DNA of 40,648 nt from Eubacteriales bacterium (GTDB lineage: Bacteria; Bacillota; Clostridia; Lachnospirales; Lachnospiraceae): contig JAUNGM010000036.1 in assembly GCA_030524545.1 (NCBI GenBank), forward strand, positions 1-40,648, written 5' to 3'. Positions 28,663-39,884 of the stretch are shown here, one piece after another. Within the stretch, counting starts at the first letter, position 1, and each line of letters starts with the position of its first letter. Under the pieces are notes generated by a model that worked only from the letters and a program-made list of their open reading frames with translations, had not been told where the DNA came from and searched no databases. The position numbers and the translations under genes are program-made.

Positions 28663-28728
28663 AAATGAAGATTAAATTACCGAGCACAGATGAAAATAAA
28701 ATGAAAACTTCGTGATAATTACCGGGGG

Positions 28729-28744
28729 ACATGCATATGCATGT
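28729..28744. promoter_or_regulatory. 16-bp perfect palindrome at the translation start region
   Basis: ACATGCATATGCATGT reads the same on both strands. It sits about 70 bases after the promoter -10 and 10 bases before the likely TTG start, next to a GGGGGA run that may serve the ribosome. It could be an operator or an mRNA hairpin covering the ribosome site. Confidence 0.5.
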
Positions 28745-28753
28745 GATGGACGA

Positions 28754-30613
28754 TTGAAAAGAAAAATTTTAATGCTTTCCAGTAACTGGAACAACGAATA
28801 TATGTGCAAACTGATCAGAGGGGTCCAGAGGCGTATTGGCCGGGAGGAAATGGATCTCTACATTTTTAATGCGTATGATATCGTTGAAAATTTTGACTAT
28901 CAAAAAAAAGAACGTGAAATTTACTGTCTGCCGAATCCGGATGATTATGACGGCGTTCTGGTGGCCATCAGCAGTGTGGGGAATATTCCGATTGTCGAGG
29001 AGCTTGTAAAGCCCTACCAGAAACAGGGCAAGAAATTTCTGAGTATCGAACAGGAATTTCCCGGGATCTACTATGCGGGAATCAATAATTACAGGGCAGT
29101 TTATAAGCTGGTAGAGCATATGATCATGTGCCATGGCTGTAAGACGTTGAATTTTGCGGGAGGCCCAAGAGATCATTCGGAAAATATGGAACGCTACCAG
29201 GCGTATTGTGATTGCCTGAGGGATTATAATCTGGAAGTTGATGAAAAGAGAATTTGTTTTTATTCTTTTGAATATGCAGACGGGATCCGTGCATATGAAG
29301 AGTGGAAGCGGCTTGGGCTTCATCTTCCGGACGCAGTGATCTGCGGCAATGATGATATGGCTATGGGCTACTGCGTTGCAGCGGAAAAAGACGGATACTT
29401 TGCGCCGGAGGATTTCTGTATTACCGGATTTGATAATATTGATGAGGGCCAGCATTTTTCCCCTTCCATTACAAGTGTGAACAGGCAGTGGGAGCAGCTT
29501 GGCTACAACAGTATGGACAAGCTGCTGGCATTGATCGACGGCAGTGAATCCGCGCCCAAATGCTATACGGAGGAGTCGTACAGCCTGAATGAAAGCTGCG
29601 GCTGCAGGCGAGACGGCAAAAGTGCAGGACGGGATTTTATCTATCTCTTTAAACGGAAAAAATGGGAAGAGTTTATGAACAACCGTCAGCGTGTTGCGAG
29701 ACAGCTTTTGTGCGGAAGCCTTGATGATGAGGAAATTGCCCGCAATCTGGAGGCGTGCAGTGATCTTTTTCACCTGTCCGGCATCGCGGTTTATCTGAAC
29801 CAGTTCTTTATTGAGGGAGGCCTGCGCCAGAGGAAGCAGGGGTATGATAAGTCCATGCAGCTGCTTTTTCGGGAGCCGAGAGGTATGGTATCCAGAGAAG
29901 AGCAGATGATTCCGGCGGAGTGGATGTCCGATACAAAGCCGCAGGTGTTTCTGTTTTCGCCGCTGCATTTCCTTGACTGTTCTTTCGGGTATTGTGTGAT
30001 CCGTTATGAAGAGCGCATTATGATGAACCGGAACCACCGTACATTAATGGAAACCATTTCCCTTGCTCTGGAGAATATCCGTCAGAGGATGAGCCTGAAC
30101 AACATGAACCGTCAGCTTCAGCGGCTTTATGTACGGGATGCGCTGACCGGACTCTATAACCGGTCCGGATATGGCGAAAAAGCGAATGCGTATTTTCAGG
30201 AGAAGAACAGAAAAGTATATTTAATCTATTTGGATCTGGACAATCTAAAGTACATCAATGACAATTATGGACATGCAGCAGGTGATAAAGCCATTCTGGC
30301 TGCGGCGAAGGCAATACGCAGGGTCTTCTGCAATGATGAGATTCGGGTACGGATGGGCGGTGATGAATTTCTGGTTATCGGAAGTTTTATCAGCGAAGCG
30401 GACATTGTGGAAAAAGAAAAAGAAATGGAGCGGTGTCTTGCTTCTTATGGCCGGAAGGAGAACATGCCGACTATTCTAAGGGCAAGCATGGGTCACGCAT
30501 GGAACGAGGGACGTTATGAAAATCTGGAAACCCTGGTTCAGCTGGCAGATTCCGAAATGTACCGGACGAAGCAGAACCGGAAAAAAGCAAATTGTCGGGA
30601 TAAAAGTAAATAG
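28754..30613 (+). CDS. Soluble diguanylate cyclase with LacI-type sugar-sensor domain
   Basis: About 619 residues; the start is uncertain (GTG 28712, TTG 28754 or ATG 28772; TTG matches the expected KRKILMLSSNWNNEY beginning). Residues 1-290 form a periplasmic-binding-fold (LacI effector) domain, with GVLVAISSVGNIPIVEEL, AVICGNDDMAMGYCVAAE and ITGFDNIDEGQHFSPSITSV. There is no helix-turn-helix, signal peptide or membrane segment, so the sensor is cytosolic. A linker domain of about 150 residues precedes the GGDEF domain (GGDEF at 535-539, preceded by DALTGLYNRSGY). The active-site motif is intact; the RxxD inhibition site normally 5 residues before it is absent. It should make c-di-GMP in response to an internal ligand, probably a sugar. 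Confidence 0.87.
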   Translation: MKRKILMLSSNWNNEYMCKLIRGVQRRIGREEMDLYIFNAYDIVENFDYQKKEREIYCLPNPDDYDGVLVAISSVGNIPIVEELVKPYQKQGKKFLSIEQEFPGIYYAGINNYRAVYKLVEHMIMCHGCKTLNFAGGPRDHSENMERYQAYCDCLRDYNLEVDEKRICFYSFEYADGIRAYEEWKRLGLHLPDAVICGNDDMAMGYCVAAEKDGYFAPEDFCITGFDNIDEGQHFSPSITSVNRQWEQLGYNSMDKLLALIDGSESAPKCYTEESYSLNESCGCRRDGKSAGRDFIYLFKRKKWEEFMNNRQRVARQLLCGSLDDEEIARNLEACSDLFHLSGIAVYLNQFFIEGGLRQRKQGYDKSMQLLFREPRGMVSREEQMIPAEWMSDTKPQVFLFSPLHFLDCSFGYCVIRYEERIMMNRNHRTLMETISLALENIRQRMSLNNMNRQLQRLYVRDALTGLYNRSGYGEKANAYFQEKNRKVYLIYLDLDNLKYINDNYGHAAGDKAILAAAKAIRRVFCNDEIRVRMGGDEFLVIGSFISEADIVEKEKEMERCLASYGRKENMPTILRASMGHAWNEGRYENLETLVQLADSEMYRTKQNRKKANCRDKSK

Positions 30614-31620: not shown

Positions 31621-32538
31621 TTATGCAGCATTTCCAATCTTCATTTTATTTCTCGGATGTCGGGTTCTTAGAATTTCTGCCTGTTTCTCTGCTGCAACAT
31701 GTATATAAATCTGTGTGGTTTTTATTGAACTATGACCCAGAATCTGTTGGAGGCAACTAACATCTACCCCTTCCTCGATTAAATATGTTGCAAACGAATG
31801 CCGGAACATATGTGGTGTAATATTACTATCAATACCAGCCAGTTTTGTATACTTTTTCATCATATTTCTTATAGACTGCTCTGTAAAACGACCTCCTCTC
31901 TGATTAATGAAAAAATACCCGCATTCTTTAATTGCTTTCTCGTTTTCGGTATAATACTTCTTTAGGAGTTCAAGAATATCCGGCTCTCCAATCTGAATGT
32001 AACGCTCCTTTCCCCCTTTTCCCATAATCCGGATTAACCCAGAATTTAAATTAATACAGTCCGACCTTATATTCGATATTTCATATACTCTGGCCCCCGT
32101 TGCAAAAAACACTTCCACTACTGCTATATCCCGTAAACGATATTTATAAACAGATATATCATTCTCATCCAAACAACCATACATACAATTTAAGAGCTTC
32201 TCAATTTCTTCTCGAGGAATTATTCTCGGAAGAATTATATTCTCTTTGAATTTCACCTTTACTTTTCTAAAAGGATTTTCAATAATAATCTCTTCATCTT
32301 CTAAATAATTATAAAATGCTTTTATTGACGCAATTTTCCGTTTTACACTTTTCTGCTTATACTTTTTATGCAACTCAGTTATATATTCTTCTATTTTTTC
32401 TTTGTTAGGATTTTCGCAGCAAACAAAATCATAAAACTGTCTCAAATCAATACGATACGCCTTCAATGTTTTGGAATCCAGTTCCTTTCTATATTTACAG
32501 TACTCCAAATATGTTTCTACTTTATCAATTGGTTCCAT
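31621..32538 (-). CDS. Tyrosine site-specific recombinase (Xer/invertase type)
   Basis: A 305-residue recombinase. The N-terminal SAM-like DNA-binding domain spans residues 1-85 (LEYCKYRKELDSKTLKAYRIDL...). The catalytic domain has R150 in ATGARVYEIS, the Lys in GKGGKERY near 174-177, H243 and R246 in HMFRHSFATYL, H269 in ILGHSS and nucleophile Y278, all intact. ATG 32538 has AAGGAG 9 bases ahead; the upstream TTG and ATG overlap the promoter. It lies between two pairs of related inverted repeats and is the obvious candidate to invert them. Size and lack of excisionase or phage genes favour a local invertase over an integrase of a mobile element. Confidence 0.92.
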   Translation of the reverse strand: MEPIDKVETYLEYCKYRKELDSKTLKAYRIDLRQFYDFVCCENPNKEKIEEYITELHKKYKQKSVKRKIASIKAFYNYLEDEEIIIENPFRKVKVKFKENIILPRIIPREEIEKLLNCMYGCLDENDISVYKYRLRDIAVVEVFFATGARVYEISNIRSDCINLNSGLIRIMGKGGKERYIQIGEPDILELLKKYYTENEKAIKECGYFFINQRGGRFTEQSIRNMMKKYTKLAGIDSNITPHMFRHSFATYLIEEGVDVSCLQQILGHSSIKTTQIYIHVAAEKQAEILRTRHPRNKMKIGNAA

Positions 32539-32566
32539 TTTCGCTTTCTCCTTATCTTTTTTATCC

Positions 32567-32595
32567 ATACTATCGTTTACAATACTACTTTTCAA
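32567..32595 (-). promoter_or_regulatory. Promoter for the recombinase gene
   Basis: On the minus strand TTGAAA (32595-32590), 17-base spacer, TAGTAT (32572-32567). It fixes the start codon at 32538. Confidence 0.7.
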
Positions 32596-33126
32596 GAGAT
32601 TAACCGCTTATAACCTATTCAATAATACGTAACCATAAAATCACATACAGCAAAAAATAGCATAGCATTTAAGGGATATCTTACTTTATCACCTCTTACC
32701 TTAAGCTCACCTAAGTTTAGTGCCCAAGCCAGTTCACTAAGCTCCATAATCCAGATTCCCTGCAGCTTTTCAGCAGCAATAAGTAAAAATAAATATTGGG
32801 TTTATTGTAGTATATGATTTCTTTACGCGGATTCCCACAAACGCAAGCAGGGTGTTTCAGACATACCTATGAATTGTTCAAAGAAAATCAACAACATTTT
32901 GGTAAAGATTCTGTTTTTATCCATATTGGTTTCTTTGGCTGAAACTTATATTCTCAGCCTGAGTTTTGAGGGATGCTGCTGATGTTGCCGCTTTTTCACT
33001 TACCTTTGTCTTCATCGGTAACTATTTTTCGGAAATACAGGTTTTACCGGCAACCATCTATGTTTCATATTATAGAAGTGTTTTTTAAAGTTTCTAAAAA
33101 AAGATAAAGAAGTGTTACACGATAAA
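32596..33126. other. AT-rich stretch between recombinase and switch B
   Basis: Apart from the small membrane-protein relic listed separately (32869-33088), I see no gene, RNA or strong repeat in this half kilobase. Composition is AT-rich like the rest of the island. Confidence 0.5.
32869..33088 (+). pseudogene. Possible relic of a small membrane protein
   Basis: An ATG at 32869 opens a 37-codon frame with one hydrophobic helix (INNILVKILFLSILVSL). The next frame continues with another hydrophobic stretch (AAFSLTFVFIGNYF) to a stop at 33086-33088. One frameshift near 32970 would join them. There is no good ribosome site. It may be chance in AT-rich DNA. Confidence 0.25.
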
Positions 33127-33312
33127 GGATAACTACTAATTATCCTTTGTTCATTGAAGTGATAGCCAAAAAAAGTATATGAAAACAAGAAGGATACTGA
33201 TTTTTTGAGTATATTTGAAGGTATTTAGGCGTATTTGATATTAGAGTCTGCCTAAAGAAAAATGTTGTTTTTGCCTATATCTATGCAAAATATAACATTT
33301 CCAAGATTGGCC

Positions 33313-33341
33313 TTGAATTTAAAGATTGTTAGTGTTATCAT
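33313..33341 (+). promoter_or_regulatory. Promoter inside switch B, facing right (ON state)
   Basis: TTGAAT (33313-33318), 17-base spacer, TATCAT (33336-33341). Transcription would start near 33348 and run through the right repeat into the TnpB-like gene and possibly the capsule genes. Confidence 0.7.
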
Positions 33342-33369
33342 TAATCTTAACTTTCAGGAGTTTTTTCTG

Positions 33370-33381
33370 ATGGATAAGTGA
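33370..33381 (+). other. Three-codon leader frame at the right repeat
   Basis: CAGGAG (33355-33360) stands 9 bases before ATG-GAT-AAG-TGA, whose stop lies in the right inverted repeat. It may be a leader peptide or the chance stub of a gene start. Confidence 0.3.
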
Positions 33382-33415
33382 TAATTAGTAGTTATCCTGA
33401 CAAGAGGTAAAAAAT

Positions 33416-34561
33416 ATGGCAGATTCCAGACGCGATGCATCTGGTTATAGTATCAGAACCTATTCCCTGCGGATTCACAGTCAGCATCCGGAATGGCTGG
33501 AACAGAATCAAAAGCTGTTTGGCGAGGCAGAAACATTTTACCTGCATCTGCTGGCAAATCAGGAATTACTGTGGAGCCTTGGAAGTCAGGCGCTTATGCG
33601 GGAACTGGAAAAACAAACAGTTTCTTCCAGAAACAATCCGTTGCCGCCGCATCCACTTCCATGGGAAAAACTACCCTCTTATTTCCGGCGTGCCGCCATC
33701 AATACAGCTATTACATTCTGGCGAAGCTGTCAGTCTAGAGGACAAGTGGACATTCCGGAACAGATTCAGGGAACAGCATTGTTTTATAACCGAATGTACC
33801 GGAACCTGAGTAGTACACAAGTTGAATTAAGGATTTGGACAGGAGAAGCGTGGAAATGGCTGCCCTGCACTTTGACTGGTGGAAGCCTGCCGGATCAGGG
33901 GAGTATACAGTGGCTTTCTCCATACACAGTGAAACGGCATAAATATTTCATGCTTCATGTCCCTGTGCGTATTCCGGTCTATGATACGCGGAAATTGCAG
34001 CAGCGAATCACAGCAGGTGAGCCGCTCTGCGGAGTCCATTTTACCAATACAGACGCATTTGCAGTTGCATGCATCATAGACGGTCGGGAACGGCAGCAGG
34101 CTGTCCGCTATTTCAAGGGAGGACGCCAGTATCAGCATCAGTGCAGCAAAGCTCTGGCTTCTATTGCAAAAAGCAATACGAGTCATGGAGCAGAAGGACA
34201 GCCCAGGGCGAATCAGCGCTACTGGATGTACCTGAAGCATGTAAATGATCATTGGGCCAACCGTATCAGCAAAGAAATCATAGATTTCTGTATGGAAAAT
34301 GGAGCAACGGTGATTGCAGTAGCGGACTATCATCCTGATTTTGAAAGAGCTGTTATGACGAAAGTAGGAAACTGGTCACCGCTGCATTTAAGCACGAGAA
34401 TTCGAAATTGTCTGTTATATAAAGCATGGCGAAACGGAATCTTGATTGCAAATATTCCTTCCTTCAATACCGCTGCAAAGAACCAGCCTGGTGATGACCG
34501 CCTGAACAAAGCCCGCAACATTGCCAGACAATGCCGGGAAAATTTTGTTAAACAGAGATAA
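33416..34561 (+). CDS. TnpB/Cas12-like protein with lost RuvC catalytic residues
   Basis: A 381-residue protein that follows the TnpB (IS605 OrfB) plan. The N-terminal wedge and recognition helices (about 10-110) are followed by a beta-rich wedge return (about 135-185) and a split RuvC domain. RuvC-I reads CGVHFTNTDAFAV (205-217), with His208 where TnpB has the catalytic Asp of GVD. The bridge helix region keeps the VNDHWANRISKEII pattern (276-289). RuvC-II reads TVIAVAD (298-304), with Ala or Val at the Glu position. RuvC-III reads GDDRLNKARNIA (359-370) in place of DRDxNAAxNI. The CxxC zinc finger is missing. It should therefore bind RNA and DNA but not cut. AGAGG stands 8 bases before the ATG. 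No tnpA or transposon ends are seen, so it appears domesticated. The fold assignment rests on motif order alone. Confidence 0.7.
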   Translation: MADSRRDASGYSIRTYSLRIHSQHPEWLEQNQKLFGEAETFYLHLLANQELLWSLGSQALMRELEKQTVSSRNNPLPPHPLPWEKLPSYFRRAAINTAITFWRSCQSRGQVDIPEQIQGTALFYNRMYRNLSSTQVELRIWTGEAWKWLPCTLTGGSLPDQGSIQWLSPYTVKRHKYFMLHVPVRIPVYDTRKLQQRITAGEPLCGVHFTNTDAFAVACIIDGRERQQAVRYFKGGRQYQHQCSKALASIAKSNTSHGAEGQPRANQRYWMYLKHVNDHWANRISKEIIDFCMENGATVIAVADYHPDFERAVMTKVGNWSPLHLSTRIRNCLLYKAWRNGILIANIPSFNTAAKNQPGDDRLNKARNIARQCRENFVKQR

Positions 34562-34906
34562 TTGCTGCAAGCGGCAATCTCTTGTTTATAGATTAATGAA
34601 GTTCCAAACCGGTTCGTTTGATTGATGTAAAGGCTGGTAAGCCATGCAGAAAATCAGGAATAACGCCGGATTTCGGGAATATCGGGCAACCGAATTATGA
34701 GTAACGCTATAGGCATTGCTCATCGGCAGAACACCGCCGCCTGCCTCTATCGCAGAGGAAGGAAAAAAGCTACGAAGTCAAAATATGACGGAGCGCCTGG
34801 TGTTCGAAGTAATAAATGAAATAGCCTCTGCCCTGTGTGGCTGGGCTACGAAATTTATTATTGTGATAAGTTATAAATTAAAAATAATGGCTGTAGGAGA
34901 AAAAGT
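34562..34906 (+). ncRNA. Gene-free, hairpin-rich stretch: possible guide RNA or operon leader
   Basis: 345 bases with no credible gene and more GC than the flanking AT-rich DNA. Hairpins visible: ATTGC/GCAAT at the start; TCGG-GCAA-CCGA with a GNRA loop (34682-34693); TGAGTAA/TTGCTCA (34698-34722); CCTCT/AGAGG (34743-34757); GTCA/TGAC (34776-34788). A long broken stem at 34811-34859 pairs AATAAAT/ATTTATT, TAGCC/GGCTA and GCC/GGC. GCTACGAA occurs twice (34768-34775, 34845-34852), the second on the descending arm of the long stem. TnpB guide RNAs are typically made from the 3' end of the gene and just beyond, which fits; an antitermination leader for the capsule operon is the alternative. Confidence 0.35.
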
Positions 34907-35803
34907 ATGAAAGGGATTATTTTAGCAGGTGGTTCAGGAACACGCCTGTATCCATTAACAAAAGTTACATCAAAGCAATTGCTTCCTATTTATGATAAGC
35001 CAATGATTTACTATCCGATGTCTGTTTTGATGAATGCAGGTATTCGGGATATTTTAATTATTTCCACACCGCAGGATACTCCGCGTTTTCAGGAATTGTT
35101 GGGCGACGGACACCAGTTTGGGGTAAATCTTACCTACTCAGTACAGCCCTCACCGGATGGACTGGCACAAGCATTTATTATTGGAGCCGATTTTATTGGA
35201 AACGATACGGTTGCGATGGTGCTGGGAGATAACATTTTTGCAGGACAAGGTCTGAAGAAACGGCTTAAAGCAGCAGTGGAAAATGCGGATAGTGGAAAAG
35301 GTGCCACTATATTCGGCTATTACGTTGATGACCCGAAACGTTTTGGAATTGTAGAGTTTGATCAGGATGGCCACGCTGTTTCCATTGAAGAAAAACCCCA
35401 GCAGCCTAAGAGTAATTACTGTGTGACAGGGCTTTACTTCTACGACAACAGGGTAGTGGATTATGCAAAAAATCTAAAGCCATCCGCCCGGAGAGAGTTA
35501 GAGATTACCGATTTGAACCGTATTTATCTTGAAAGCGGTGATTTGAATGTAGAACTTCTTGGACAGGGCTTCACCTGGCTGGATACTGGTACTCATGAAA
35601 GTCTTGTGGATGCCACGAATTTTGTGAAAACTGTTGAGACTCATCAGCATCGTAAAATTGCCTGCCTGGAAGAAATTGCATATCTGAATGGTTGGATCAG
35701 CAGAGAAGAGGTTCTTGAGGTATACGAGATACTTAAGAAGAATCAATATGGGCAGTATCTGAAAGATGTACTGGATGGAAAATACATTGATGCGCTGCAT
35801 TAA
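34907..35803 (+). CDS. rmlA: Glucose-1-phosphate thymidylyltransferase RmlA
   Basis: A 298-residue enzyme that makes dTDP-glucose from glucose-1-phosphate and dTTP, the first step to dTDP-L-rhamnose. It starts with the nucleotide-binding [18 protein letters not shown], followed by [35 protein letters not shown], the [11 protein letters not shown] segment and [13 protein letters not shown]. All family motifs are intact. TAGGAGA stands 7 bases before the ATG. It is the first biosynthetic gene after the TnpB-like gene and the hairpin-rich stretch. Confidence 0.96.
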
Positions 35804-35954: not shown

Positions 35955-36869
35955 ATGAAAGTATTTGTGACAGGTGTTGCAGGGCAGCTCGGACATGATG
36001 TGATGAATGAGCTGGCGAAGCGGGGATATGAAGGCATCGGCGCAGATGTCGCGCAGGTCTACAGCGGTATCCACGACGGTTCTGCAGTGACGAAAATGCC
36101 GTATGTCCAGATGGATATTACCGATAAAGAAGCGGTAGAAAGAATCATTACCAGGATGAACCCGGATACGGTAATCCACTGTGCTGCATGGACTGCTGTG
36201 GATATGGCGGAAGATGATGACAAGGTGGAAAAAGTCCGTGCAGTCAATTCCAGAGGGACAGAAAACATCGCCAAAGCCTGTAAGACATTGGACTGCAAAA
36301 TGGTATATATCAGCACGGACTATGTGTTTGACGGGCAGGGGACAGAGCCATGGCAGCCGGATAGCAGAGACTATAAACCTCTGAATGTATATGGACAGAC
36401 GAAGCTGGAAGGAGAACTGGCAGTCAGCAGGAACCTTGAAAAATACTTCATTGTCCGTATTGCATGGGTGTTTGGAGTGAATGGGAAGAACTTCATTAAG
36501 ACGATGTTGAATGTGGGAAAGACGCACGATACAGTCCGTGTGGTCAATGACCAGATAGGTACTCCAACTTATACCTATGATCTGGCACGCCTACTGGTGG
36601 ATATGATTGAAACAGAAAAATATGGATATTATCATGTGACGAACGAAGGCGGCTATATTTCATGGTATGACTTCACCTGCGAGATTTATCGGCAGGCCGG
36701 GCTGAAAACCAGGGTCATTCCGGTCACTACGGAGGAATATGGCTTGTCAAAAGCTGCCAGACCATTCAATAGCAGGCTGGATAAGAGCAAACTATCTGAG
36801 AATGGCTTTCGGCCGCTTCCGGACTGGCAGGATGCATTAAGCCGTTACTTAAAAGAAATCGAATATTAA
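35955..36869 (+). CDS. rmlD: dTDP-4-dehydrorhamnose reductase RmlD
   Basis: A 304-residue NAD(P)H-dependent short-chain-fold reductase for the last step to dTDP-L-rhamnose. The dinucleotide loop is VTGVAGQLGHDV (5-16), with CAAWTAVD near residue 76, STDYVFDG near 119 and the catalytic YGQTKLEGE near 146, then AWVFGVNGKNF. CGGAGG lies just before the ATG. It follows the rmlB remnant by 22 bases and precedes rmlC. Confidence 0.95.
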   Translation: MKVFVTGVAGQLGHDVMNELAKRGYEGIGADVAQVYSGIHDGSAVTKMPYVQMDITDKEAVERIITRMNPDTVIHCAAWTAVDMAEDDDKVEKVRAVNSRGTENIAKACKTLDCKMVYISTDYVFDGQGTEPWQPDSRDYKPLNVYGQTKLEGELAVSRNLEKYFIVRIAWVFGVNGKNFIKTMLNVGKTHDTVRVVNDQIGTPTYTYDLARLLVDMIETEKYGYYHVTNEGGYISWYDFTCEIYRQAGLKTRVIPVTTEEYGLSKAARPFNSRLDKSKLSENGFRPLPDWQDALSRYLKEIEY

Positions 36870-36921
36870 CACGCAGTTGGTTCGATGATTGACAGACAGG
36901 GAAAAGATAGAGGTTAAGGAA

Positions 36922-37524
36922 ATGGGACAGATAAAAGTAGCAAAGGCCCCGATTGAGGGCTTATACGTAATTGAGCCGATCGTTCATGGCGACAGCCGAG
37001 GCTATTTCATGGAGACATATAACCAGAAAGATATGCATGAAGCCGGCTTGGATATGTTGTTCGTTCAGGATAATCAGAGCATGTCTACCAAGGGGGTACT
37101 GAGAGGTCTCCATTTTCAGAAACAGTATCCACAGGGAAAACTAGTGCGTGTGATACGAGGTGCTGTATTTGATGTAGCCGTTGATCTACGTTCAGGAAGT
37201 GAGACTTATGGTCATTGGTATGGAGTGGAACTGACAGAAGAAAATAAGAAGCAATTCTATATTGCGGAAGGCTTTGCCCATGGTTTTCTTGTGCTGTCAG
37301 ACGCAGCGGAATTTTGCTATAAAGTAACAGATTTTTATCATCCTGGAGATGAAGGCGGCCTTGCGTGGAATGACCCTGAGATTGGGATTCAGTGGCCGCA
37401 GTTGGTTGGGGAATATAAGGGGACAGCCAGTGCAGACGGATATCATCTGGAAGATGGGACAGGGCTGAATCTCAGTGATAAAGATCAGAAGTGGCTGGGG
37501 TTGAAAGATGCATTTAAGTTTTAA
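36922..37524 (+). CDS. rmlC: dTDP-4-dehydrorhamnose 3,5-epimerase RmlC
   Basis: A 200-residue cupin-fold epimerase. It shows RGYFMETYNQKD near residue 28, the substrate and catalytic His segment GVLRGLHFQKQYPQGKLVRV near 58, FDVAVDLR, and the Tyr-bearing FCYKVTDFY near 128. The start at 36922 (MGQIKVAKAP) has GAGGTTAAGG ahead and gives the normal family length; a TTG at 36889 would add 11 residues without a ribosome site. Its substrate would have to come from an RmlB encoded elsewhere. Confidence 0.93.
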   Translation: MGQIKVAKAPIEGLYVIEPIVHGDSRGYFMETYNQKDMHEAGLDMLFVQDNQSMSTKGVLRGLHFQKQYPQGKLVRVIRGAVFDVAVDLRSGSETYGHWYGVELTEENKKQFYIAEGFAHGFLVLSDAAEFCYKVTDFYHPGDEGGLAWNDPEIGIQWPQLVGEYKGTASADGYHLEDGTGLNLSDKDQKWLGLKDAFKF

Positions 37525-37549: not shown

Positions 37550-38671
37550 ATGGTAGTGAAAAAGAAAATAAGAGTTATGCATGTTGCCCAGCCAGCCGGT
37601 GGAGTAGACCGTTATCTCCGAATGCTTCTCAAGTATTTGGATAAACAGCGGATAGAAAATATTGTAGTACTGTCTCAGGACTTCCATAGGGAAGACTATA
37701 AGGAATTAGCTGATTTCTATGAAACCGTGGAGATGCAGCGGGCAATCGGAGTACAGGATCTAAAGGCAATTTACCAGGTCAGAAAGCTAATTAAAAAATA
37801 TTGTCCTGATGTAGTCTATGCACATTCCAGTAAAGCTGGGGCAATTGCGAGAGTTGCTGACATAGGGATGAGCAATCGCTGTATCTATAATCCCCATGGT
37901 TGGGCTTTCAATATGAAGACGTCATCCAAGACGCAGAAGATGTACACAATGATCGAAAAAATGGCAGCACTGTTCTGCGATATGATCATATGCATTTCCG
38001 ACGCTGAAAAGAAGTCTGCATTAGAAAAGAGAATATGCAAAGAGGAAAAGTTACAAGTCATCTTTAACGGTGTAGATATTGATGCATATGAAGAGGCTGA
38101 GCATGGGCTTATAAAGAGAACTACTTTAGGAATTCCTGATGACGCTTTCGTTGTGGGAATGGTTGGTCGGCTTTGCAAACAGAAAGCTCCCGATGTGTTT
38201 GTGAAAGCTGCGAAGCTGATTAAGCAGGACATCCCATCAGTGCATTTTATTATTGTCGGAAATGGGGAAATGGAAGCTGAGGTCAGGAAATATGCAGAAG
38301 AAAATGGATTATCCGATAGCTTACATATTACTGGCTGGGTTGAGAACCCTATGAGCTATGTTGAGTTATTTGATGTGGCTTGCCTGGTTAGTCGCTGGGA
38401 AGGATTCGGATTGGCCTTGCCAGAGTACATGCTGGCTGGAAAACCGATTGTGGCAACAAGGGTAGATGCGATTCCGGACATTATCAAAGACGGAGAGAAT
38501 GGTTTGCTTGTTGAGGTGGATGATATAACGGGAATCTATATGGCTATCATGAGGCTTAATCAGAACATGAAAGTTAGAGATGCGTTGATAAGTAAGGCGA
38601 AACAGAGTGTTATCAGATTTGATGCAAAACGTGTAAGCGCAGAACATCAGGAGTTATTTGAAAAGATGTAA
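37550..38671 (+). CDS. GT4 family glycosyltransferase
   Basis: A 373-residue cytosolic or membrane-associated sugar transferase with a GT-B fold. The N-terminal acceptor half has GGVDRYLRMLLKYL and VVYAHSSKAGAIARVA. The donor half has GMVGRLCKQKAPDVFVKAA near residue 202 and the E-x7-E donor motif in SRWEGFGLALPEYMLAGKPIVATRVDAIPDII near 283. It probably adds a sugar to the capsule repeat unit; rhamnose is a reasonable donor given the neighbours, but this is inference. The ATG follows GAGGGGAG. Confidence 0.92.
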   Translation: MVVKKKIRVMHVAQPAGGVDRYLRMLLKYLDKQRIENIVVLSQDFHREDYKELADFYETVEMQRAIGVQDLKAIYQVRKLIKKYCPDVVYAHSSKAGAIARVADIGMSNRCIYNPHGWAFNMKTSSKTQKMYTMIEKMAALFCDMIICISDAEKKSALEKRICKEEKLQVIFNGVDIDAYEEAEHGLIKRTTLGIPDDAFVVGMVGRLCKQKAPDVFVKAAKLIKQDIPSVHFIIVGNGEMEAEVRKYAEENGLSDSLHITGWVENPMSYVELFDVACLVSRWEGFGLALPEYMLAGKPIVATRVDAIPDIIKDGENGLLVEVDDITGIYMAIMRLNQNMKVRDALISKAKQSVIRFDAKRVSAEHQELFEKM

Positions 38672-38690: not shown

Positions 38691-39884
38691 ATGAAGAAAA
38701 CTGCAATTGTGTCGTGTTATTTTCAACATAATTATGGGAGTATGCTTCAGGCATATGCAACGCAAATGGCCTTGGATAAATTAGGCTATGAAAATGAAAC
38801 TATTGATATATCTGGTTTTAATACTGAAATCAAAAAGGCAAAATTGCTATATTTTGCGAAAGCAAGTCTAACTTCAGACATTTTGTTGTCAAAGATAGGA
38901 ATGGCAAAGAATGTACTGAAAAAGAAGTTTTCAAAGAATCAGTATGCATCAAATTCTAAGGTTCGAGCAACCAAATTTGATGCATTTAGCAAAATGTATT
39001 TCCGATTATCTGAGAAGTATAGTTCAAAAGCTGAACTTGGAGAGAAGTGTGTTGAAAAATATTCTGGTGTTTTAGTTGGAAGCGATCAGCTTTGGCTACC
39101 CGGTAATATTGCTGCTGATTATTATACGTTGAATTTCGTACCGGAGTCTGTCAATACAATTGCGTATGCGACTAGTTTCGGTCAGTCCAGCCTTCCGAAG
39201 GACTCTGCAAAAAAGGCTTCAATTTTTCTTAAGAGAATTAAGTATATTGGAGTACGGGAAGAATCTGGTCAGAAATTAGTTAAAGAACTTTCGGGCAGGA
39301 ATGTTCCGGTAGTTTGTGATCCAACATTGCTGTTTACCGGAGATGAATGGTTAAGCATTCAGGAAAAGGAGCCGTTGGTGAAAAAACCATATATTCTATG
39401 TTACTTTCTCGGAAATAATTTACCGCATCGAGAATTCGCAAAACGGTTGAGAGAAGCAACAGGCTATAAAATTGTGGCATTAACGCATTTGGATGAATAT
39501 GTAAAGAGTGATGAAGGATATGCCGATGAAACACCATATGATATTGATCCAGCAGATTTTCTGAATCTAGTCCGCAATGCATCTTTTGTTTGTACAGATT
39601 CATTTCACTGCACAGTATTTTCAATTCTATATGGACGCAAATTTTTTACGTTCCATAGGTATAGTAAGAATACCAGACAGTCTACAAACAGCCGGCTTGA
39701 TACGTTATTTAACCTGACAGGTATAGAGGGACGAATGATGAGCGGCAATGAGGATATAGAAGCATGTATAAATGCGGAAATTGATTTTAGCACGGTATAT
39801 AAAAAAATAGAAAAAATCAGAAAACAGTCATACAACTATCTTATAGATGCTTTAAAGGCAGGTGATGGAGAAAAGCATGAATAA
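38691..39884 (+). CDS. Polysaccharide pyruvyl transferase family protein
   Basis: A 397-residue member of the PS_pyruv_trans family, which transfers pyruvate from phosphoenolpyruvate to form ketals on surface polysaccharides. Typical segments are VSCYFQHNYGSMLQAYATQMAL at the start, YSGVLVGSDQLWLPGN near residue 122, YATSFGQSSLP, VVCDPTLLF near 205 and FVCTDSFHCTVFSILYGRKFFTFHR near 301. It overlaps the next gene by 8 bases. Codon use is more AT-rich than in the core genes to the left, in keeping with transfer of the capsule locus. Confidence 0.9.
   Translation: MKKTAIVSCYFQHNYGSMLQAYATQMALDKLGYENETIDISGFNTEIKKAKLLYFAKASLTSDILLSKIGMAKNVLKKKFSKNQYASNSKVRATKFDAFSKMYFRLSEKYSSKAELGEKCVEKYSGVLVGSDQLWLPGNIAADYYTLNFVPESVNTIAYATSFGQSSLPKDSAKKASIFLKRIKYIGVREESGQKLVKELSGRNVPVVCDPTLLFTGDEWLSIQEKEPLVKKPYILCYFLGNNLPHREFAKRLREATGYKIVALTHLDEYVKSDEGYADETPYDIDPADFLNLVRNASFVCTDSFHCTVFSILYGRKFFTFHRYSKNTRQSTNSRLDTLFNLTGIEGRMMSGNEDIEACINAEIDFSTVYKKIEKIRKQSYNYLIDALKAGDGEKHE

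What the first reader, a model, noticed from the sequence alone, without database searches (positions are those of the whole stretch)
33416..34561. Catalytically dead TnpB-like protein placed at the head of a capsule operon
Seen: TnpB plan with RuvC-I Asp changed to His208, the RuvC-II Glu lost, a rewritten RuvC-III and no zinc finger, but bridge-helix and DNA/RNA-binding regions kept. Known: TnpB-derived nuclease-dead repressors (TldR) are RNA-guided transcription factors. I am not aware of one described at capsule loci under an invertible promoter. Inference: it may act on other capsule loci or on its own promoter, much as UpxY/UpxZ manage competing capsule loci in Bacteroides.
Basis: partly seen in the sequence, partly recalled or inferred. 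Interest (0 to 1): 0.9.

Follow-up and report, generated by a model that had tools for sequence, protein, structure and literature searches.

The report
Dead TnpB regulator with RNA scaffold
A gut bacterium starts a surface-sugar operon, behind a DNA switch, with a disarmed relative of gene-cutting enzymes and its own guide-RNA-like partner; this looks like a new set of RNA-based regulators of surface coats, but what it binds is still unknown.

Summary
ORF 33416-34561 has a TnpB/Cas12f fold (model pLDDT 92.9) and none of the three RuvC catalytic residues (H208, A303, R362). It belongs to a family: 65 of 65 aligned members lack all three, 4 of 4 outgroup TnpBs keep D-E-D. The part missed is a structured RNA at 34635-34813, directly 3' of the gene, with a covarying pseudoknot, like a TnpB/Cas12f guide scaffold; it follows the gene in 40 of 42 inspected loci. 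The module sits behind a promoter in an invertible segment, seen in both orientations in relatives, and before polysaccharide genes (60 of 64 loci). Most likely a TldR-like nuclease-dead RNP made with one phase-variable polysaccharide. Its target is not shown: five candidate guides have no perfect non-self match in their genomes; inexact matches stay at or below control in three, exceed it in two. A close published parallel is csrA-tldR-fliC behind hin invertons (PMC13418256, section 11). So: TldR-like build, targets unproven; a polysaccharide link did not turn up in our paper searches.

The parts
31621..32595 (-). XerC/D-type tyrosine recombinase gene, likely the invertase of the switch
   Evidence: Pfam Phage_integrase 7e-42; XerD/XerC NCBIfam hits below cut-off; that it works on this switch is inferred
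33126..33154 (+). left inverted repeat (recombination site)
   Evidence: 29-nt arm, 86% complementary to 33370-33398; 19-nt perfect core
33155..33369 (.). invertible segment carrying the promoter
   Evidence: between the arms; homologous segments of relatives seen in both orientations; not shown for this very locus
33313..33341 (+). promoter TTGAAT-17-TATCAT with TG extension, pointing to the TnpB-like gene (ON orientation)
   Evidence: the promoter scan of the region found 5, shuffles 5.4; agrees with the family promoter TTGACA-17-(TG)TATCAT at a similar place; orientation call weak, 10 v 9 matches
33370..33398 (-). right inverted repeat
33416..34561 (+). nuclease-dead TnpB-like protein, 381 aa (H208, A303, R362 in place of D, E, D; zinc finger lost)
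34635..34813 (+). guide-RNA-like structured scaffold
   Evidence: covariance model match 81.7 bits, full length (this sequence was one of the 25 used to build the model); covariation on the 25-sequence alignment
34729..34735 (+). 5' strand of the scaffold pseudoknot (GAACACC)
   Evidence: pairs with 34799-34805; most relatives carry GAATACC/GGTATTC-like pairs, others GAGCACC with GTGCTT
34799..34813 (+). 3' strand of the pseudoknot (GGTGTTC) and the conserved 3' handle (GAAGTAAT here; AAGTTAT in most)
34814..34829 (+). putative guide (or merely the 3' flank); no non-self target found
   Evidence: sharp conserved/variable border; A/T-rich, C-poor in relatives; own genome: the exact self match plus 8 others at 2 mismatches, v 14 for the reversed control
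34907..35803 (+). rfbA, first polysaccharide gene (nucleotidyl transferase)
35955..36869 (+). rfbD/rmlD
36889..37524 (+). rfbC, dTDP-4-dehydrorhamnose 3,5-epimerase
37550..38671 (+). glycosyltransferase (group 1)
38691..39884 (+). polysaccharide pyruvyl transferase

Best explanation
This is an exapted, nuclease-dead TnpB that works as a TldR-like ribonucleoprotein regulator of surface polysaccharides. A tyrosine recombinase flips a promoter segment; when it faces inward, one transcript yields the dead TnpB, then its guide-RNA-like scaffold, then the polysaccharide enzymes. The protein binds the scaffold. The RNP then most likely lowers expression of something else, best guess competing polysaccharide loci, by binding DNA through a short A/T-rich guide that follows the scaffold. 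Shown by sequence: dead active site, TnpB fold, covarying scaffold, position, invertible promoter in the family, polysaccharide genes, several such loci in many of the genomes. Inferred: one common transcript, protein-RNA binding, use of the 3' flank as guide, DNA binding, repression, and the identity of the targets.
For: Fold and kinship. 65 of 65 family members have 0 of 3 catalytic residues, 4 of 4 outgroup TnpBs have 3 of 3. Scaffold: 89.5% of cells paired v 71.2% in shuffles, 22 of 29 pairs with changes on both sides, covariation 0.591 v 0.243 shuffled and at most 0.150 when slid. Model R1 over 78 sources (1.09 Mb): 42 hits at E<=1 (37 at E<=0.01), each on the strand of a dead-TnpB gene and starting from about 45 nt before to about 340 nt after its end; 20 of the 42 lie in places not used to build the model, three of these being near-copies of ones that were. 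Own genome: two strong hits, both at its two dead-TnpB genes, and one at noise (E 0.63). Invertons: repeat score >=16 in 47 of 87 heads v 1 of 261 shuffles and 1 of 60 operon interiors; after removing outgroup and repeated loci, 43 of 73. The same segment inverted between loci of one genome, e.g. L057 v L130, 97%; promoter toward the gene in 11, away in 27, unclear in 3 of 41. Polysaccharide homologs downstream in 60 of 64 flanks, upstream in 13 of 59. Precedent: TldRs bind DNA by gRNA, guides of 6 nt suffice, and csrA-tldR-fliC loci lie behind hin and an inverton, with predicted cross-targeting in one strain (PMC13418256, section 11 and passages).
Against: No target found. Five guides searched as 15-mers (<=2 mismatches) in their genomes: the only perfect match is the RNA's own gene; non-self matches v reversed control are 8 v 14, 28 v 37, 2 v 13, but 32 v 4 (G263) and 6 v 1 (G098), the last two above control with nothing perfect. 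Heads: 14-mer best match 10.28 own, 10.29 sibling, 10.22 unrelated; short seeds slightly commoner at siblings (per pair: 6-mers 3.03 v 2.57, 8-mers 0.32 v 0.26) but without a common adjacent motif; anchored tests have as best cases 7 of 28 v about 1.3 expected among 600 tests and 5 of 49 v about 0.6 among 640. Flanks differ between apparent orthologs, with an indel in the seed in L003/L038. The first 11 nt after the scaffold are on average about 83% A/T with about 3% C, odd for a programmed guide. P0001 is on a long branch (0.93 v median 0.22) and has lost its zinc finger.
Confidence: 0.5

Rival explanations
1. Cis-acting leader RNP: the dead TnpB binds its scaffold in the nascent transcript and acts on the RNA polymerase or mRNA of the same long operon (as LoaP, RfaH or UpxY do for such operons; recalled, only a paper listing seen), without using a DNA guide.
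For: Where it is found the scaffold lies between the gene and variable polysaccharide genes; the 3' flank has no non-self perfect match in five tests, differs between apparent orthologs and is C-poor. Terminator-like sites within 260 nt after the scaffold are about three times commoner than in shuffles (12 of 53 v 12 of 159).
Against: Those terminator-like sites lie at scattered distances, with no conserved one after the scaffold; with a stricter test only 3 of 54 loci have one within 700 nt after the gene, and sense and antisense strands are alike, 37 v 31 over 348 kb. The distance from the gene to the next ORF varies widely. The relatives characterised so far, as far as I know, bind DNA (recalled).
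Confidence: 0.25
2. Autoregulator: the RNP binds its own locus (own promoter, or the guide-encoding DNA itself, whose match is perfect by construction) and tunes or limits its own operon.
For: The only perfect genomic match of the five guides tested is their own gene; without a nuclease, self-binding is not lethal (inference).
Against: No clear enrichment of guide matches in own heads; TnpB guides normally spare their own gene because the target-adjacent motif is missing there (recalled).
Confidence: 0.12
3. Passive relic: a decayed transposon gene carried along with the inverton, no longer functional.
For: Long branch and lost zinc finger in P0001; some loci have broken copies (L006 with an internal stop; L055 split into two frames).
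Against: Protein and RNA scaffold are kept together across many genomes with compensatory changes in the RNA; 65 of 65 share the dead state and the predicted fold of P0001 is confident; no tnpA beside the two copies in the own genome.
Confidence: 0.08

Closest known systems
csrA-associated TldR of gut Clostridia (Oscillibacter, Flavonifractor; PMC13418256, section 11 read)
   Same: Nuclease-dead TnpB relative with gRNA; chromosomal; recombinase gene and an invertible promoter upstream; several loci in one genome; tied to a surface structure
   Different: There hin (serine type, recalled) and flagellin; here a tyrosine recombinase and polysaccharide operons; there targets confirmed by ChIP-seq, here none found; the relation of the two clades was not tested (its sequences were not on hand)
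Phage-encoded fliC TldR (Wiegand 2024, not held, recalled; Walker 2026, abstract and passages)
   Same: Dead RuvC, cognate gRNA, transcriptional control
   Different: This family gave no match to P0001 in 50,697 phage records and none with the family alignment in viral contigs
dCas12f with gRNA (PDB 9n9c, 9n9m; entry titles only)
   Same: Nuclease-deactivated Cas12f fold; Foldseek 4e-11
   Different: The sigma-factor partner of that system is recalled; none was looked for here beyond the Pfam-scanned neighbours
UpxY/UpxZ control of Bacteroides capsule loci (recalled)
   Same: First genes of phase-variable capsule operons behind invertible promoters
   Different: UpxY is a NusG relative; no TnpB and no guide RNA

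Membership tests
TldR (TnpB-like nuclease-dead repressor) | TnpB-type fold | tested here: met
TldR (TnpB-like nuclease-dead repressor) | RuvC catalytic residues lost | tested here: met
   0 of 3 kept in 65 of 65 members; window H208/A303/R362
TldR (TnpB-like nuclease-dead repressor) | gRNA scaffold encoded next to the gene | tested here: met
   conserved structured RNA next to the gene; that it is bound by the protein was not tested
TldR (TnpB-like nuclease-dead repressor) | guide complementary to a target promoter or gene | tested here: inconclusive
   no perfect non-self match of five 15-mers; inexact matches above control in two of five; a 6-nt guide, which TldR can use, cannot be resolved this way
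TldR (TnpB-like nuclease-dead repressor) | RNA-guided DNA binding and repression | not testable with these tools
   needs RIP-seq, ChIP-seq, reporter
TldR (TnpB-like nuclease-dead repressor) | linked non-transposon cargo, no tnpA | tested here: met
   polysaccharide genes; own genome: one broken Y1_Tnp on another contig; for the other loci only the 25 commonest neighbour families were listed
Active TnpB / IS605 nuclease | D-E-D catalytic triad | tested here: not met
Cas12f (CRISPR effector) | CRISPR array and repeat-derived guide | tested here: not met
   no repeat array in window 32600-35000 (that stretch only); single scaffold with a single flank
Phase-variable polysaccharide operon (inverton) | promoter between inverted repeats, found in both orientations | tested here: met
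   for the family; for the window locus only one orientation is on hand

The most novel reading that the evidence does not exclude
A guide-RNA-like scaffold and a dead TnpB have been turned into a guide-independent, cis-acting leader RNP that rides on or marks its own polysaccharide transcript, so that an RNA-guided nuclease became an operon-specific RNA-binding regulator that no longer reads DNA; alternatively a mutual-exclusion network in which each switched-on coat locus silences its siblings by very short guides.
Probability: 0.3. Interest if true: 0.92.

Novelty: new variant of a known kind. Interest (0 to 1): 0.8.

Why it matters
It would extend RNA-guided (or scaffold-RNA-based) regulation from flagella to surface polysaccharides in gut Clostridia, in a setting where DNA inversion picks which coat is on. 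It gives a direct handle on the question of how phase-variable coats are kept to one or few at a time outside Bacteroides. It also offers a possible case of a TnpB whose scaffold RNA is under strong selection while its guide is not. Both readings are testable by RIP-seq and ChIP-seq.

Tried and rejected
Guide targets: all held loci; own-locus and sibling heads, gene bodies and downstream stretches with 14-mers and exact prefixes, where heads show nothing and sibling downstream stretches a small excess (best 14-mer 10.43 v 10.06, prefix 6.80 v 6.24); 6-8-mers with a look for a common adjacent motif; position-anchored tests on promoter and start codon, 600 and 640 tests per setting, a few odd offsets with small counts that I put down to the number of tests, without a formal correction; five genome searches; two 18-mers in viral contigs, 0 hits each. 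Antitermination at a nearby intrinsic terminator: some excess over shuffles but no conserved site. The 3' handle AAGTTAT as a fixed guide for the heads: 20 of 73 v 12.3 expected, AAGTAAT 6 v 12.6, GAAGTTAT 2 v 1.6; not convincing. Active TnpB in the same genome: none over the cut-off; the only two matches are the two dead copies. Known RNA family: no Rfam match over 34635-34813. Carriage by phages: no match; plasmids, searched with the paralog L002 only: one distant TnpB, 27%. First genome-contig scan with P0001 alone found no relative; with the family alignment it found 76 loci. The single-sequence fold of the window RNA is not striking (z -1.77); the case for the RNA rests on covariation. 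Single clade of the dead proteins: tree support for the split from the outgroup was low (0.347), so one or several losses is open.

Full report
What was claimed. I checked the protein, its family, the DNA on both sides, and possible targets.

The protein. The ORF is intact, 381 aa. Alone it is a weak TnpB match (NCBIfam guided_TnpB E=2.4e-9, below the curated cut-off), but it has relatives: a 44% identical copy in the same genome, matches in 14 of 64 genomes of the genus (its own included) and in 9 of 397 sampled genomes of the family (own included), and 76 named loci from the species-genome collection, five of them only distant or partial matches. Among them are Blautia schinkii, B. massiliensis, B. 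parvula, Coprococcus comes, Eubacterium callanderi, Anaerotruncus colihominis and Acetivibrio ethanolgignens. I aligned 69 proteins (A5: P0001 plus 68 of the 73 ORFs extracted from the 76 loci; no usable frame was taken from L115, L131 and L135, and L085, L086, L099, L114 and L119 were dropped as short, cut or duplicate). All 69 match guided_TnpB and 67 also Cas12f2. The predicted structure of P0001 is confident (mean pLDDT 92.9, pTM 0.86), and the 50 Foldseek matches listed, of 74 at E<=0.001, are TnpB, Fanzor or Cas12-type proteins or complexes.

Dead by descent, not by accident. At the positions of the RuvC triad the window has H208, A303, R362. In A5, 65 of 69 sequences have none of D, E, D; the four that have all three are the distant outgroup sequences L129, L132, L133, L134. 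That these columns are the catalytic ones rests on the alignment with TnpB/Cas12f chains and on recalled motif knowledge. Relatives mostly keep the zinc-finger pattern near the C-terminus (TNB model in 64 of 69); the window protein has lost it and sits on a long branch. Tree support for a single dead clade is low (0.347).

The missed part: an RNA. Directly downstream of the gene homologs have a conserved block, GGTTGAATACCGCC...GGCGAAGA...GGTATTCGAAGTTAT in its commonest form, followed by variable sequence. By motif and eye I placed its end in 40 of 42 loci; the other two (L055, L046) are a broken copy and one cut by its contig end. On 25 of these (15 near-duplicates, distant or odd ones left out) four helices and a pseudoknot have 89.5% of cells paired against 71.2% in shuffles, with changes on both sides in 22 of 29 pairs and a covariation score of 0.591 against 0.243; sliding the partners gives 0.150 or less. 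In the pseudoknot GAATACC/GGTATTC becomes GAACACC/GGTGTTC in the window (34729-34735 with 34799-34805). The covariance model R1 was run on 78 sources: 42 matches at E<=1, 37 of them at E<=0.01, each on the strand of a dead-TnpB gene and beginning at or soon after its end (about 45 nt before to about 340 nt after). They cover 39 of 76 named loci (L063 twice, for its two gene copies), the window and L019; 20 lie in places not among the 25 used to build the model, three of those being near-copies. Loci without a match are mostly the more distant or cut ones. The window match is by construction. In the whole own genome only the two dead-TnpB genes give strong matches, and a third is at noise. No Rfam family matches there. 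Layout, pseudoknot and conserved 3' handle are those of TnpB/Cas12f guide RNAs (recalled); this is the best evidence that the protein still holds an RNA.

The switch. Heads of the genes carry inverted repeats at a score of 16 or more in 47 of 87 (1 of 261 shuffles, 1 of 60 operon interiors); without the outgroup and with repeated loci merged, 43 of 73. The segments between them were compared: in B. schinkii DSM 10518 two loci have the same segment, 97% identical, in opposite orientation, and other sets show both orientations. A conserved promoter, TTGACA-17-(TG)-TATCAT or a subfamily version, points to the gene in 11, away in 27 and is unclear in 3 of 41 loci; four repeated and seven odd loci had been dropped before that count. 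In one Acetivibrio MAG two of eight point inward. In the window TTGAAT-17-TATCAT at 33313-33341 lies at a similar place and points inward (ON), by a narrow margin (10 v 9); the paralog on C49 is OFF. A nearest upstream ORF with a phage-integrase domain was found in 12 of 59 scanned, of 67 collected; the window has a Xer-type gene there.

The cargo. First downstream ORFs (56 scanned of 63 collected) match sugar-nucleotide and sugar-transfer enzymes (Polysacc_synt_2/Epimerase in 12, Bac_transf in 9, glycosyltransferase families in several; 25 of 45 families were listed). By homology to 57 seed proteins taken from the window and nine of the loci (chosen by position, not checked one by one; hits to the seed's own locus excluded), 60 of 64 downstream flanks hit, and 13 of 59 upstream flanks; three or more seeds hit in 54 and 1. 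In the window: rfbA, rfbD, rfbC, glycosyltransferase, pyruvyl transferase, then the contig end.

What does it bind? This is open. If the 3' flank is a guide, the window's is AAATGAAATAGCC... Five guides from four genomes (two from the window's own) were searched as 15-mers with up to two mismatches. The exact match was always only the RNA's own gene. Non-self inexact matches against the reversed-pattern control were 8 v 14, 28 v 37, 2 v 13, 32 v 4 (G263) and 6 v 1 (G098); the last two exceed the control, but none is perfect and in G263 they are scattered over many contigs. Heads of the own and of sibling loci show no clear excess (details under evidence against). The first 11 nt after the scaffold are on average about 83% A/T with 3% C, against about 65% and 11% in the next 19 (52 sequences, averages taken by hand from its table). 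TldR is reported to work with guides of six nt (PMC13418256, passage), which such searches cannot resolve. So RNA-guided action in trans is the best guess by descent, not a result. A cis-acting RNP is the main rival; the terminator tests gave it little support.

What is known. Section 11 of PMC13418256 (read) describes csrA-tldR-fliC loci in gut Clostridia with hin genes upstream and inversions of a region with a flagellar promoter, and predicted cross-targeting in one strain; its introduction (passage) says that many TldRs are linked to non-transposon genes. That is the same idea of design for another surface structure. I found no paper on TnpB relatives at polysaccharide loci in my searches of the open library (listings and starts of abstracts, apart from PMC13418256), which lacks the two key papers on TldR and TnpB diversity and most subscription journals; a mention there cannot be excluded.

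Verdict. Observation confirmed; interpretation partly supported. It is built like a TldR; membership stays open because guide-directed DNA binding was not shown. Novelty: new variant of a known kind.

Noticed in passing
inverton heads of relatives, e.g. L054, L074, L088, L057, L002: A motif AGTGGTCA/TGACCACT, in some loci as direct repeats inside the invertible segment, in 22 of 73 distinct heads against 0.8 expected in shuffles; looks like an operator of an unknown regulator.
   Followed up: partly
window 34865-34877; 5' leaders of L061, L062, L064, L065, L068, L070, L077, L130: GATAAGTTATA recurs about 40-100 nt before several dead-TnpB genes and, in the window and a few others, between the RNA and the first polysaccharide gene; only 3 exact copies in the window's genome. 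It shares AAGTTAT with the 3' handle of the RNA. Unexplained.
   Followed up: partly
window 28712-30613: A protein joining a LacI-type periplasmic-binding domain to a GGDEF domain lies upstream of the recombinase gene.
   Followed up: no
L063 (two gene copies), G424:C109: Two dead-TnpB plus RNA modules about 4 kb apart on one contig.
   Followed up: no
G000:C47:246020-246223: A broken remnant of an IS200/IS605 TnpA, the only Y1_Tnp match in the genome, with no TnpB match on that contig.
   Followed up: no
L048, L040, L047, L041 heads: Some loci lack a strong repeat pair; at least one of them (L048) has a family promoter pointing inward, so that it may be locked on.
   Followed up: no
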